Positions 42,477 through 48,380 of a stretch of DNA of 64,000 nucleotides are shown here, in pieces; the stretch's first letter is position 1, and each line of letters begins with the position of its first letter. The notes beneath the pieces are model-generated. The model was not told the origin of the DNA. It saw only the letters and a list, made by a program, of their open reading frames with translations, and made no database searches. A program made the position numbers and the translations under genes. The stretch is from Streptomyces sp. Go-475 (lineage in GTDB: Bacteria; Actinomycetota; Actinomycetes; Streptomycetales; Streptomycetaceae). Location: contig NZ_CP026121.1 in NCBI RefSeq assembly GCF_003330845.1, positions 6,863,501 to 6,927,500 of the forward strand. The letters are read 5' to 3'.

Positions 42477-44323
42477 CCGACGACATCCAGAACTGGGGCA
42501 TACGGAAGAGGCTGGAGGCAACACTCCGGTCGCGCGCCAGTCAGGCGCGGACCGAATATCCTCTCTCGTACGCCCAGCGCCCGCTTGTGCTGCTGCATCG
42601 GATGAATCCGGACAGCGCGTCCTACAACGTCGGGTTCACCGCCCGGTTCACCGGCGGATTCGACTCCGCCACGTTCGGCAGCGCGGTCGCGTCCCTGGTC
42701 GGGCGGCACGCGGCCCTGCGCACCACCTTCAGCGGCACCGACCTCCAGACAGTGCACGGTTGGCTCGAACCCGATGTCGCCGAACTGGACGCCCGCCAGT
42801 GGAACCAGCGGCAGATCGAGGACGCGATACGCCGTGCCTATCTCGCTCCGTTCGACCTGTCGGCCGGACCACTGGTCCGGGTGCGGACGTATGCGGTGGC
42901 ACCAGGAGAGGCCGTGGTGCTGCTGGCTGTGCACCATGTGGTGTGCGACTTCTGGTCACTCGGCGTCATGGTGGCGGAACTCGAGCAGCTCTACCTGGCG
43001 GAGGCGGAACGGAGGCCCTCCCAACTGCCCGGAGGCAATGTCCCCTACAGCGATTTCGTCGCCTCTCAGCAGGAGCTGATCCAAGGGGAGAAGGGCAGCA
43101 GAGCGCGTGCCTATTGGCATGCTCAGCTCGCCGGCCGGCTCGAGCCGGCCGAATGGCCCCCCTGCGCACTCGGCCCGGATACCGACGGGGGCGGATCGAT
43201 CGTGTTCCCCATCGCGCCAGAGCTCGTCGACGGGGTGCGCGCGCTGGCCAAGGAGGAAGAGGCCACACCTTACGGCGTCTTGCTGACCGTCTTTCAGGTC
43301 CTCATCGGCCGCTACACCGGGCGGCACGACGTCCTGGTGGGGTCTCCCTTCGCCGGCCGGACCAGTCCGGCGATGGCCGAGTGCGTCGGCAACTTCGTCA
43401 ACCCCGTCGTGCTGCGCGCCGATCTGAGCGACGCGGTGGCGTTCCGGGAGCAGCTGGACCGTACTCGCCGTACCGTCATCGACGCGCTCGAGCACCAGGA
43501 CTACCCGTTCGAGTTGCTTGTCGGCGAGCTGGCGCCGCGTCGGGTGGACGACCGTAACCCGATCTTCCAGACGATGTTCAGCTACCAGAAACCCAGCCGG
43601 TACCCGGCGCTGGCCGGTCTCTACGTGGCTGACGACGGCGCGGCCCCCGTCGGCTGGGCGGGGCTGACCGCGGTGCCGTTCCGGCTGGACCAGCAGGACG
43701 ACCAGCTCGAGCTCGTACTCGAGGTCGTGCACGACGGCGACCGGCTCGTCGGGCTGCTCAAGTACCGCAAGTCCGTCTTCTCGGCTCAGGCGGCTCGTCA
43801 GGTAGCCGAGAACTATCTGGCACTGCTGCGAGCCGCGCTGGCAGACCCTGGCCGCAGTGTGGCGGAACTCCCGATGGCGTCCGACGTCACCCCCGGCACC
43901 AGCCGGCGCACGGCCACGGTCCGTGAGTCCGCCGGCGCGGCCCCTGGGAGCGGCACCGCGCTGCGGGGTATCGAGCAGCGGATCACGGCCATCTGGCGGC
44001 AGGTGCTCGGGCGCGAGCGGATCGGGCGGGACGACAACTTCTTCGACCTCGGTGGCAACTCCATGCTGCTGGTGCAGGTGCACGAGATGCTCGCCGACGA
44101 AACCGCGGGCACTCCGCTGAAGATCAACGAATTGTTCCGCTACCCGACCGTGGCCAGTCTGGCCCGACGCCTCGGCCGGACCGCCGCTGGGGCCGGTCCG
44201 GCCCCTGACCGAGGCCGGGCGTCGAGCAGGCGGGCACAGCTGGCGGGCGGAACGGCCCGCAGCGCACGCCTGCGCGCACGAGAACGTCGCCAGCTGGACA
44301 CCGACAGGGGCAACGATGACTGA
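42473..44323 (+). CDS. NRPS condensation-carrier didomain (C-PCP), no adenylation domain
   Basis: 616 residues. The C domain (about 20-450) has an intact HHVVCDFW active site (about 151-158). It is followed by a PCP with DLGGNSMLLV (Ser about 530) and an Arg/Ala-rich tail. The A domain that would load the PCP is absent, so the amino acid must be activated elsewhere; the only full A domain in the window is the glycine-type one at 27908-32245. ATGA overlap with the PKS before, 8-bp overlap with the PKS after. It likely forms an amide between the enoyl chain and an amino acid. Confidence 0.9.
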   Translation: MTDDIQNWGIRKRLEATLRSRASQARTEYPLSYAQRPLVLLHRMNPDSASYNVGFTARFTGGFDSATFGSAVASLVGRHAALRTTFSGTDLQTVHGWLEPDVAELDARQWNQRQIEDAIRRAYLAPFDLSAGPLVRVRTYAVAPGEAVVLLAVHHVVCDFWSLGVMVAELEQLYLAEAERRPSQLPGGNVPYSDFVASQQELIQGEKGSRARAYWHAQLAGRLEPAEWPPCALGPDTDGGGSIVFPIAPELVDGVRALAKEEEATPYGVLLTVFQVLIGRYTGRHDVLVGSPFAGRTSPAMAECVGNFVNPVVLRADLSDAVAFREQLDRTRRTVIDALEHQDYPFELLVGELAPRRVDDRNPIFQTMFSYQKPSRYPALAGLYVADDGAAPVGWAGLTAVPFRLDQQDDQLELVLEVVHDGDRLVGLLKYRKSVFSAQAARQVAENYLALLRAALADPGRSVAELPMASDVTPGTSRRTATVRESAGAAPGSGTALRGIEQRITAIWRQVLGRERIGRDDNFFDLGGNSMLLVQVHEMLADETAGTPLKINELFRYPTVASLARRLGRTAAGAGPAPDRGRASSRRAQLAGGTARSARLRARERRQLDTDRGNDD

Positions 44324-47300: not shown

Positions 47301-48380
47301 CGTTGGACGCAACGGTTCGTTCCCGCAGCGGCTGCCCCCGGCCCGTCGACCCCGGCCAGTCGGCTGCGGCCCGGTGGCGTGTACCTCGTCACCGGCGGTC
47401 TCGGACGGACGGGGCTGGCCCTCGCCGGCCACCTGGCCCGCGTCGCCGGAGCCAAGCTGGTACTCACCAGCGACTCCCCGCTTCCGCGACCCGACGAGTT
47501 CGACCGATGGATCACCGAGTACGGAACAGCCCACCCGGTCAGCCGAAGGATCGAGGCCGTCCGCGACGTCGAACGTCTCGGCGGCACTGTCATGGCGGAA
47601 TCCGTCGACGTCACCGACGCGGGAGCGATGCGGGAGCTGGTCGGCACCGCCCGTCAGCGGTTCGGCCGGATCGACGGATGGTTCCACTGCGCCGACGCAC
47701 CGCACGACCAGGCCCCGTGCCGGGTCGACCGCACTGACCGGGCCGCCTGGCGGCAGGCCCTGGCTCCCAAGGTCCGCGGAGCGCTGGTGCTGGCCGAGGT
47801 CTTCGGTGACACCCTCGTCGATTTCGGCGTCATGATGTGCTCACTCACCTCGGTGCCGGGCGGAGGCGACCCGTGCCGTTCGGCAGCCGACGGCTTCCTT
47901 CACGCACAGGCGTCGGGCGTGGACGGACTGATCACCGTCACCTGGGACGAGTCCCTGTCACCAGGGCAGCGCGCCGATGTCCTCGACTTTGCACTGCGCT
48001 CCGACATGCCGTCTCTGCTCTCGGTGTCCCTCACCAACCCGGAACACCGCGTCCAGGGGCAGTGGGCTCTCCCGGACCCAGTCCGCCCGGTGCTCGCCTC
48101 CCCCAGGCAGCAGCTCCGCGGGAACGAGCTGAAGGCGGCTCTGGCGAAACTGTGGTCCGAAGTGCTGGGGACGGAGATCAGCCGTTACGACGTGAGCATG
48201 CTCGACGTGGGTGGCGACGAGCTGCTCGTGGTCAGGCTCGCCCGGCGAATCGAGGAAGAGCTCGGTGTGCCGCTGTCGGCTGTCGAACTCCTCGCGAACC
48301 CGACCATCGATCGCCTGGCGGCGAGCCTGGGCCCCGTCTCGATCGTTCACGGTGGTGGCCTGCGGAGTGCCTTCTCATGA
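44316..48380 (+). CDS. Type I PKS with active KS but inactive AT, KR and ACP
   Basis: 1354 residues. The KS is intact: TACSTS (about 184), EAHGTA (about 320), NIGH (about 361). The following AT is shortened, and GHSxGE has become GGAGVGE (about 604), losing His and Ser. The KR keeps TGGLGRTG (about 1025), but the catalytic region reads CSLTSV-DPCRSAADG, with Ser at the Tyr position (codon 47880-47882). The carrier reads VGGDELLVV, with Glu (GAG at 48217-48219) instead of the phosphopantetheine Ser. Only chain elongation therefore remains; extender unit and carrier must come from other proteins. A dead KR leaves a beta-ketone, which is what the next protein's aminotransferase needs. Confidence 0.9.
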   Translation: MTDGSVGGPAVRPNDVAVIGMCGRFPGAGSVAQFWNRLRAGDDMLTTFTDAELAAAGVPEQVLRDPGYVKRAASLPDAYDFDHEFFGFTKREAKLLDPQQRILLEVAWELLETIGYSGGTDAQGIGVFAGASMNTYLTNVVARSCDPLGYDGTELMIANDKDYLTTRISYKLGLTGPSVNVQTACSTSLVAVHVAVQSLLTGECDIALAGGVSVIANDYPGYVFSEGMILSPDGRCRPFDADGAGTTFGDGVGLVALKRLTEAIEDGDQILAVVKGSAINNDGSDKIGYTAPSIGGQRAVIAEAQAVAEVDAGTITYVEAHGTATALGDPIEFAALSEAFADGGARPGQCALGSVKANIGHVAAAAGIAGFIKAVLALRHREIPGHPAFTRPNPQIDLVGSPFYINTLPMAWPAGETPRRAGVSSFGIGGTNAHVVLEEAPPPADRPARPGGPQTLAVSAHSDVALRELARQLADALEEPDAPDLVDVAFTLRQGRRGSSHRYAVTAADRAGAAAGLRALTDGRSTGVRVAETTPTVSFLFGDVPAEEFSVLSARLSAVADLAERSTGCAVASADDPSAALLTASRVLATLWTESGVRPAAVGGAGVGELLAACFAGVFEPSDALALLSWRAGTAAHVPEVRPRVPDLPILSAVVGGELPQTRVLDPLHWTRDIWEGDRLAEAFSGRAAQGAAVVAIGNPAVLPAGSGLDDEQGLPPLERLLTAAGRLWTEGVPVDWSAWYGGPQYRVPLPVHPLERTFLRLEPPSASVQEEQGRGQNPSEWLYTPSWQRLGPGAGGYPESALPIGPWLLFGDSGGVGDSLADSLREQGAEVVLVRQGGAFSRADATSFIVDPMDSGDYERLFDALATDGLAPERVIHLWSLDIAPGHLATDSLDHACGIGLFSVLDVARQLGRSPGRKGAHLAVVARDVHDITGGEVLVPAAAMTGAALNLVSQEFAGLRCRSIDIGRSALAPEALLAEIVAPTGAPIAFRNGRRWTQRFVPAAAAPGPSTPASRLRPGGVYLVTGGLGRTGLALAGHLARVAGAKLVLTSDSPLPRPDEFDRWITEYGTAHPVSRRIEAVRDVERLGGTVMAESVDVTDAGAMRELVGTARQRFGRIDGWFHCADAPHDQAPCRVDRTDRAAWRQALAPKVRGALVLAEVFGDTLVDFGVMMCSLTSVPGGGDPCRSAADGFLHAQASGVDGLITVTWDESLSPGQRADVLDFALRSDMPSLLSVSLTNPEHRVQGQWALPDPVRPVLASPRQQLRGNELKAALAKLWSEVLGTEISRYDVSMLDVGGDELLVVRLARRIEEELGVPLSAVELLANPTIDRLAASLGPVSIVHGGGLRSAFS

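What the first reader, a model, noticed from the sequence alone, without database searches (positions are those of the whole stretch)
44316..48380. PKS protein reduced to its ketosynthase: AT, KR and carrier all lack catalytic residues
Seen: GHSxGE is GGAGVGE, the KR Tyr position is Ser, and the carrier reads GGDEL with GAG where the phosphopantetheine Ser codon should be, while KS Cys/His/His are intact. Three adjoining domains dead in one uninterrupted 1354-residue frame argues for selection for a scaffold role rather than random decay.
Basis: partly seen in the sequence, partly recalled or inferred. Interest (0 to 1): 0.85.

Follow-up and report, generated by a model that had tools for sequence, protein, structure and literature searches.

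The report
Ketosynthase half-module with fossil domains
A Streptomyces assembly-line enzyme has kept one working part (a carbon-chain extender) and three dead ones, most likely because its working carrier and next step sit on the neighbouring protein; the dead parts look like remains of an older module that some relatives have already lost.

Summary
Gene 44316-48380 is a real 1354-residue PKS protein with an intact ketosynthase (Cys185, His321, His361). Its AT, KR and carrier are dead. Corrections: the KR Tyr is Arg1188 (Ser1189 is the next residue), and the AT also lacks its small subdomain. Relatives share this, so it is no sequencing error. The next gene (48491-51925) supplies an intact carrier, a class-III aminotransferase (AMT) and a condensation domain. 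The two genes most likely form one split beta-aminating module: KS extends onto the neighbour's carrier, and AMT turns the beta-ketone into a beta-amine, for which a dead KR is needed and a second carrier is useless. KS and AMT trees broadly agree: the outgroup KS protein keeps KR Tyr and carrier Ser, and outgroup AMT proteins carry their own KS, so two modules probably merged. KR residues drift, KR presence changes at least 5 times, and two fusions lack both relics: mainly decay after redundancy. dN/dS of KR0 and ACP0 is raised among close relatives, but not clearly for ACP0 at longer distance. Open point: the dead carrier keeps Glu in 16 of 17 full-length proteins and survives in 17 of 17 KR-less split forms examined.

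The parts
44316..48380 (+). KS-AT0-KR0-ACP0 protein (P0001, 1354 aa), focal gene
44355..45635 (+). intact ketosynthase (Cys185, His321, His361)
   Evidence: codons; PF00109/PF02801; dN/dS 0.12
45918..46625 (+). AT0: truncated acyltransferase, GGAGVGE, small subdomain missing
   Evidence: two-piece alignment to EryAI (91 residues there, 7 here); no PF00698; pLDDT block means 70-95 up to residue 740, low after that
46683..47345 (+). structural KR subdomain (psiKR, PF21394)
   Evidence: dN/dS 0.46, like the psiKR of the active PKS, 0.45
47346..47960 (+). KR0: Tyr to Arg1188, Asn to Asp1192; Lys1152 and Ser1176 kept; nucleotide-binding motif TGGLGRTG kept
48123..48335 (+). ACP0: carrier fold with Ser to Glu1302 (GAG 48219-48221)
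48491..51925 (+). partner gene: ACP (DSM, Ser intact) - class III aminotransferase (TYGKIVGGG) - condensation domain (HHAAVDGWS)
48599..48820 (+). live carrier of the split module
   Evidence: dN/dS 0.14
49358..50560 (+). aminotransferase domain (PF00202)
   Evidence: dN/dS 0.08
42473..44323 (+). upstream C-T protein, overlapping the focal start by 8 bases; likely donor to the focal KS
   Evidence: synteny
37122..42476 (+). KS-AT-DH-KR-ACP protein with intact AT, KR and ACP motifs (GHSLGE, HAFHS, HYAAAN, GLDSL); its AT is the only complete AT in the window and the likely malonyl loader in trans
25437..27908 (+). second KS-AT0 protein of the cluster (AT motif GHGVGE; KS second His is Asn)

Best explanation
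The protein is the KS half of a split beta-aminating PKS/NRPS module. Inferred steps: KS takes the acyl chain from the C-T protein upstream; an AT acting in trans (best candidate: the intact AT of the 37122 protein, or FabD) loads malonyl on the carrier of the 48491 protein; KS condenses onto that carrier; AMT converts the beta-ketone to a beta-amine; C passes the chain on. Shown by sequence: KS intact, AT0/KR0/ACP0 dead, partner carrier/AMT/C motifs intact, pair syntenic in relatives. Origin, inferred from trees: an old KS-AT0-KR-ACP module came to feed a KS-less ACP-AMT-C protein; reduction then became harmful and the second carrier useless, so KR and ACP decayed and are being lost lineage by lineage.
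For: Partner carrier Ser intact in 40 of 44 AMT proteins by pattern plus 2 by eye (P0130, P0147; sequences printed); the other 2 are fragments without the carrier. AMT Lys motif in 43 of 44. KS-AT0 and ACP-AMT-C genes lie together, same strand and order, in the window and in the 5 relatives looked at: S. muensis (= G220), NRRL WC-3618 (with one methyltransferase gene between them), G053, G159, G304. Four relatives carry KS-AT0-ACP-AMT-C as one chain without KR (P0049, P0144, P0158, P0159; Pfam column) and with one carrier by pattern; for P0049 and P0158 the full sequences were seen. They amount to cis versions of the same module. P0022, with KR Tyr and carrier Ser intact, is outside the other KS proteins of the family, and AMT proteins with their own, different KS (P0163, P0164, P0166) are outside the KS-less ones. 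Constraint is high on KS, live ACP and AMT (0.12, 0.14, 0.08) and lower on KR0 and ACP0 (0.54, 0.49) among three close genomes. KR Tyr, Lys and Asn drift.
Against: No biochemistry and no known product. The malonyl source is not shown: no discrete AT lies in the window and the one found elsewhere is not shared by relatives. That P0022 and P0163 share a contig is inferred only from equal contig counts and lengths. P0165 starts with its ACP too but lies outside the clade, so the KS loss may not be a single event; P0146 (Dactylosporangium) sits outside the third AMT clade while P0028 of the same species is inside the third KS clade. Intervals for active KR (0.19-0.46) and KR0 (0.35-0.88) overlap, and ACP0 (0.22-1.14) overlaps both live ACPs (0.06-0.33, 0.06-0.36). 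In the window-G159 pair ACP0 (0.32) is not above the live ACP (0.38). P0019 still has the KR Tyr while its carrier is Glu. The C-domain pattern was not found in 8 of 44 AMT proteins and reads HN for HH in 4, so the last step may differ among relatives.
Confidence: 0.78

Rival explanations
1. Scaffold selection (not exclusive of the split module): AT0, KR0 and above all ACP0 are kept as non-catalytic structural or docking elements that hold the KS dimer and bring in the ACP-AMT-C protein; Glu1302 keeps the carrier from being pantetheinylated while preserving its docking surface.
For: Glu in 16 of 17 full-length proteins counted (P0022 has Ser); a carrier domain remains in 17 of 17 KR-less split proteins examined, while the 4 fused ones show a single carrier, the live one; ACP0 mean pairwise identity 0.76 against KR0 0.69 over 120 pairs; ACP0 dN/dS no higher than the live ACP in the window-G159 pair (0.32, 0.38); KR0-ACP0 predicted as a normal fold, mean pLDDT 81; AT motif GGAG.GE exact in 35 of 38 family rows.
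Against: In KR-less split proteins the site is E 8, S 4, L 3, P 2, so Glu is not required everywhere; ACP0 dN/dS among three close genomes 0.49 against live carriers 0.14 and 0.18; only two fusion changes on the tree, and a fusion deletes the intervening carrier by its nature.
Confidence: 0.2
2. Pure neutral decay on the way to deletion (not exclusive of the split module): all three domains are debris without any role and the open frame is chance.
For: Raised dN/dS of KR0 and ACP0 among close genomes, different residues at KR catalytic sites, repeated changes of KR presence.
Against: dN/dS point estimates stay below 1 (0.39-0.54) and below a flexible linker's 0.77, though intervals overlap; AT0 core GGAG.GE exact in 35 of 38 family rows. 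A KS-AT linker and half AT may be needed for KS folding.
Confidence: 0.3
3. The KR or carrier is active through an unusual residue, so the module is a normal reducing module.
For: KR keeps Lys1152, Ser1176 and a nucleotide-binding motif in the window protein.
Against: Tyr, Lys and Asn are not kept among relatives; Glu cannot carry phosphopantetheine (established knowledge); reduction would starve the downstream AMT.
Confidence: 0.02

Closest known systems
Mycosubtilin MycA-type beta-aminating modules; CP-PLP1-C protein D6KDX7 of Streptomyces sp. e14 (PMC3870968, passages read; MycA domain order recalled)
   Same: class III AMT behind a carrier and, in D6KDX7, before a C domain; in MycA it aminates a beta-ketothioester held on the ACP
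   Different: here the KS is on a separate protein that still carries AT0, KR0 and ACP0 relics
Oxazolomycin OzmQ KS1 / OzmN KS2 and colibactin ClbC (PDB 4oqj, 4wky, 8xbl)
   Same: among the best-scoring solved chains by sequence and by Foldseek (a model whose KS part is of low confidence); in the alignment 4oqj shows a KS, a shrunken AT remnant and a carrier
   Different: oxazolomycin has a discrete AT, OzmM-AT2 (PMC5764310, passages read); none is found in this cluster. That colibactin too uses an AT in trans is recalled
Phthoxazolin A PKS module 9 and KR4/KR5 (PMC5764310, passages read)
   Same: single PKS domains called dead by the same criteria: one ACP without Ser in a module with two ACPs, two KRs without the typical triad
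   Different: there the live ACP is in the same module; here it is on another protein, and AT, KR and ACP are dead together
ZmaA acyltransferase (PDB 4qbu)
   Different: AT0 lacks the small subdomain and the nucleophile

Membership tests
Beta-aminating PKS module (MycA/McyE type) | KS with Cys-His-His | tested here: met
Beta-aminating PKS module (MycA/McyE type) | Carrier with intact Ser directly before a class III AMT | tested here: met
   DSM in the 48491 protein, PF00202 with TYGKIVGGG
Beta-aminating PKS module (MycA/McyE type) | No active KR in the module | tested here: met
   by sequence only: Tyr to Arg1188, Asn to Asp1192
Beta-aminating PKS module (MycA/McyE type) | KS and AMT in one polypeptide | tested here: not met
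   two genes in the window; one gene in P0049, P0144, P0158, P0159
Beta-aminating PKS module (MycA/McyE type) | Product carries a beta-amine at this unit | not testable with these tools
   product unknown
trans-AT / AT-less PKS | Module without a working AT in cis | tested here: met
   by sequence:
trans-AT / AT-less PKS | Dedicated discrete AT in the cluster | tested here: not met
   the only PF00698 hits in the window are the 37122 protein and the partial AT of the 25437 protein; a discrete AT elsewhere in this genome has no close copy in four relatives
trans-AT / AT-less PKS | KS falls in a trans-AT KS clade | tested here: inconclusive
   best-scoring solved KS chains include OzmQ and OzmN; no typed KS tree was built
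Canonical cis-AT reducing module (KS-AT-KR-ACP) | AT Ser/His, KR Tyr, carrier Ser present | tested here: not met

The most novel reading that the evidence does not exclude
The Glu carrier is a purpose-kept, non-acylatable docking carrier: after two modules merged, Ser-to-Glu stopped the redundant carrier from being pantetheinylated and competing for malonyl, while its charge and surface (possibly mimicking the arm's phosphate) still hold the KS protein against the ACP-AMT-C protein. It would be a post-merger interface used only while the two halves are on separate chains and lost when they fuse.
Probability: 0.18. Interest if true: 0.7.

Novelty: new variant of a known kind. Interest (0 to 1): 0.5.

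Why it matters
Relatives appear to record stages of a module merger: KS-AT0-KR-ACP with intact motifs (P0022), dead KR and carrier beside KS-less ACP-AMT-C (this window), KR gone with carrier kept, and one fused KS-ACP-AMT-C chain. It warns annotation tools against predicting a KR or carrier activity here, gives natural cut and fusion points for engineering, and makes a concrete question testable: does a dead carrier help two halves of a module find each other?

Tried and rejected
Sequencing or assembly error: rejected, since orthologues from other genomes share the motifs. Reading Tyr as Ser: rejected by alignment. A dedicated trans-AT: the discrete AT at G000:C1:5583670 has no close copy in G053, G159, G220 or G304 (44% identity or less), so it is not the cluster's own loader. 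Enamidonin/autucedine family as the product: the main text of the olenamidonin paper holds neither 'aminotransferase' nor 'PKS' (PMC11204786, passages and term counts), and the lead was dropped. Product identity stayed open. Literature: searches listed no paper that from title and abstract start describes this protein family; some returned none, and 73 and 74 listed 12 of 13 and 15 of 28. PMC6943886, PMC10921412 and PMC7930024 were read only in passages and gave no direct precedent there.

Rows dropped: P0016 (aberrant KS residues TASSAS and a very long branch) is left out of the counts of 16 of 17, of the KR counts and of the tree; its carrier is Glu and its Tyr site His. P0020 and P0023 have no carrier column. 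P0156 and P0162 are fragments without the carrier and were left out of the AMT tree, as was P0147, where my motif was not found. P0046 and P0163, P0164, P0166 were left out of the tree. In one search, 11 of 44 rows were cut at residue 760 because the end motif was not found. The carrier site needs at least 8 changes on that tree, 7 on the KS-only tree.

Limits: the KS part of the KS-AT0 model is of low confidence (model mean pLDDT 57); only the AT0 part is used. Pooled dN/dS rests on three genomes, the Nei-Gojobori method and pairs that are not independent; the fourth genome (G159) was used only as one pair.
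Full report
What is there. The window (70% G+C) lies in a one-contig genome of 8.57 Mb; among the loci fetched by name the nearest relative is Streptomyces muensis (91% over the focal protein). The focal gene, 44316-48380, overlaps the end of a C-T gene (42473-44323) by 8 bases and is followed after 110 bases by 48491-51925. Pfam gives KS, a structural KR half, KR and a carrier in the focal protein, and carrier, class III aminotransferase and condensation domain in the next. Further upstream lie a complete KS-AT-DH-KR-ACP gene (37122), an AMP-ligase (34690), an SDR, a C-A-MT-T gene (ending 32245) and a second KS-AT0 gene (25437).

The observation, residue by residue. KS Cys185, His321 and His361 are present. 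The AT nucleophile site is Gly606 in GGAGVGE. The carrier site is Glu1302, codon GAG. The AT is also physically shortened: in the alignment to EryAI, residues 27-106 and 114-232 of the query piece match 610-689 and 781-913, so 91 residues there correspond to 7 here. The remaining AT is predicted with good local confidence up to residue 740 and matches AT folds; ZmaA is top, tied with others.

Not an artefact. Of 43 aligned proteins, 38 are family members and 5 more distant; GGAG.GE is exact in 35 of the 38. In the 17 full-length proteins used for counting, this one included, the carrier site is Glu in 16 and Ser in one, P0022. Of 17 proteins with the KR column (the same set without P0022, plus P0020), the Tyr site is R in 5, Q in 4, H in 4, and S, D and C in one each; one, P0019, keeps Y. 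Lys1152 is kept in 8 of 17. So KR catalytic residues drift, while the carrier site is fixed as Glu in these KR-bearing forms.

What supplies the missing activities. The 48491 protein has an intact carrier Ser, the PLP Lys motif and the HHxxxDG motif of its C domain. Across 44 such proteins the pattern finds the carrier Ser in 40, two more are seen by eye, and two are fragments; the Lys motif is found in 43. The C-domain pattern is missing in 8 and has HN for HH in 4. Gene order AMP-ligase, SDR, KS-AT-DH-KR-ACP, C-T, KS-AT0, ACP-AMT-C is kept in S. muensis, G053 and NRRL WC-3618 (the last with a methyltransferase gene between the final two); G159 has the same order with C-A in place of A-less C-T; in G304 the part examined shows the PKS, C-A, KS-AT0 and ACP-AMT-C. 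Four relatives encode KS-AT0-ACP-AMT-C in one chain (P0049, P0144, P0158, P0159), without KR and with one carrier by pattern (full sequences of two seen). That is the direct cis counterpart of the split pair and the main reason for reading the pair as one module. A beta-ketothioester is what an AMT of the MycA type uses (PMC3870968, passages), which explains why a dead KR is required rather than odd.

History. In the KS trees P0022, with intact KR and carrier motifs, is sister to the other family members (support 93/96 for the other 39). In the AMT tree, proteins whose AMT carries its own, different KS (P0163, P0164, P0166) fall outside the clade of KS-less AMT proteins (37 rows, 99). The two trees show broadly the same three clades, with one misfit: P0146 of Dactylosporangium is outside the third AMT clade, P0028 of the same species inside the third KS clade. 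P0022 and P0163 have the same contig count and longest contig (34,246), so they probably lie together; this was not confirmed. The simplest story is two modules, KS-AT0-KR-ACP and KS-ACP-AMT-C, of which the second lost its KS and took the first one's, leaving KR and carrier of the first without use. On the tree the fewest changes are 5 for KR presence, 2 for fusion, 8 for the Tyr site and 8 for the carrier site. P0165 also begins with its carrier outside the clade and is a point against a single KS loss.

Selection. In window, S. muensis and G053, pooled dN/dS (95% bootstrap) is KS 0.12 (0.08-0.18), AT0 0.39 (0.25-0.60), psiKR 0.46 (0.31-0.67), KR0 0.54 (0.35-0.88), ACP0 0.49 (0.22-1.14). The partner has ACP 0.14 (0.06-0.33), linker 0.77 (0.57-1.14), AMT 0.08 (0.05-0.11), C 0.26 (0.19-0.34). 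Active controls in the 37122 protein: AT 0.23 (0.16-0.32), psiKR 0.45 (0.26-0.74), KR 0.29 (0.19-0.46), ACP 0.18 (0.06-0.36). Relaxation of KR0 and ACP0 is visible, but intervals overlap in part. In the single more distant pair, window-G159, values are KS 0.17, KR0 0.47, ACP0 0.32, live ACP 0.38, AMT 0.18, so there the dead carrier is no less constrained than the live one. Over 120 pairs of 16 proteins mean identity is KS 0.88, AT0 0.69, KR0 0.69, ACP0 0.76.

Scaffold or decay. KR0 behaves like decay. ACP0 is mixed: relaxed among close genomes, yet with Glu fixed in KR-bearing forms and kept as a domain in all 17 KR-less split proteins examined (Glu 8, Ser 4, Leu 3, Pro 2), while the 4 fused proteins show one carrier only. 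The variation in the KR-less forms speaks against a universal need for Glu; the retention speaks for some use of the fold. I give a docking role about one chance in five.

Malonyl source. The window holds one complete AT, in the 37122 protein (GHSLGE with HAFHS; reading that as malonyl-specific is recalled knowledge), and a partial one in the 25437 protein. A discrete AT elsewhere in the genome is not shared by four relatives. The 37122 AT in trans, or FabD, is the inferred loader.

Distribution. A 350-residue query (end of KS to AT0) found the family in 5 of 392 genomes of the genus and, in a sample of 394 genomes of the class, only in the window's own (E at most 1e-60). The protein searches show it also in Kitasatospora, Lentzea, Nonomuraea, Amycolatopsis, Actinoplanes, Catenulispora, Dactylosporangium and Kribbella.

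Verdict. Real, conserved and explained by its neighbour. Each part has precedents (dead AT remnants, an inactive ACP beside a live one, AMT modules). The combination of three dead domains on the KS half of a split aminating module, with relatives at several stages of the change, is a new variant rather than a new kind.

Noticed in passing
25437-27908 (P0002): KS-AT0 protein without carrier: the second KS His is Asn (NIGN), also in S. muensis and G053, with AT motif GHGVGE in all three; its KS is still tightly constrained (dN/dS 0.13), suggesting a non-decarboxylating KS with a kept role.
   Followed up: partly
42473-44323: C-T protein without an adenylation domain in the window, S. muensis, G053 and NRRL WC-3618, whereas G159 and G304 have C followed by an A domain there; the amino acid probably comes from an A domain in trans.
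   Followed up: partly
18118-21800: The two ABC transporter genes lie far upstream here but directly after ACP-AMT-C in S. muensis and G053: local rearrangement of the cluster.
   Followed up: no
48491-51925, carrier motif: The live carrier reads LGDSM, one residue shorter than the LGADSM/LGVDSM form of most relatives; the shorter form is shared by P0125-P0128, P0130 and P0131 (LGDSL in P0131).
   Followed up: no
36787-37125: Small ORF with a carrier-like motif LGLESL between the SDR and the KS-AT-DH-KR-ACP gene; possibly a loading ACP for the AMP-ligase.
   Followed up: no
L014:12631-13338: In NRRL WC-3618 a methyltransferase gene like window 33652-34491 (66% identity) stands between KS-AT0 and ACP-AMT-C; the two halves need not be adjacent genes.
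   Followed up: no
L008 (G000:C1:5583670-5584512): Discrete PKS-type acyltransferase (GHSIGE) 1.3 Mb away, without a close copy in four relatives.
   Followed up: partly
P0016: Family member from a short contig with abnormal KS residues (TASSAS) and a very long KS branch while its later domains align well; probably an assembly or frame problem.
   Followed up: no
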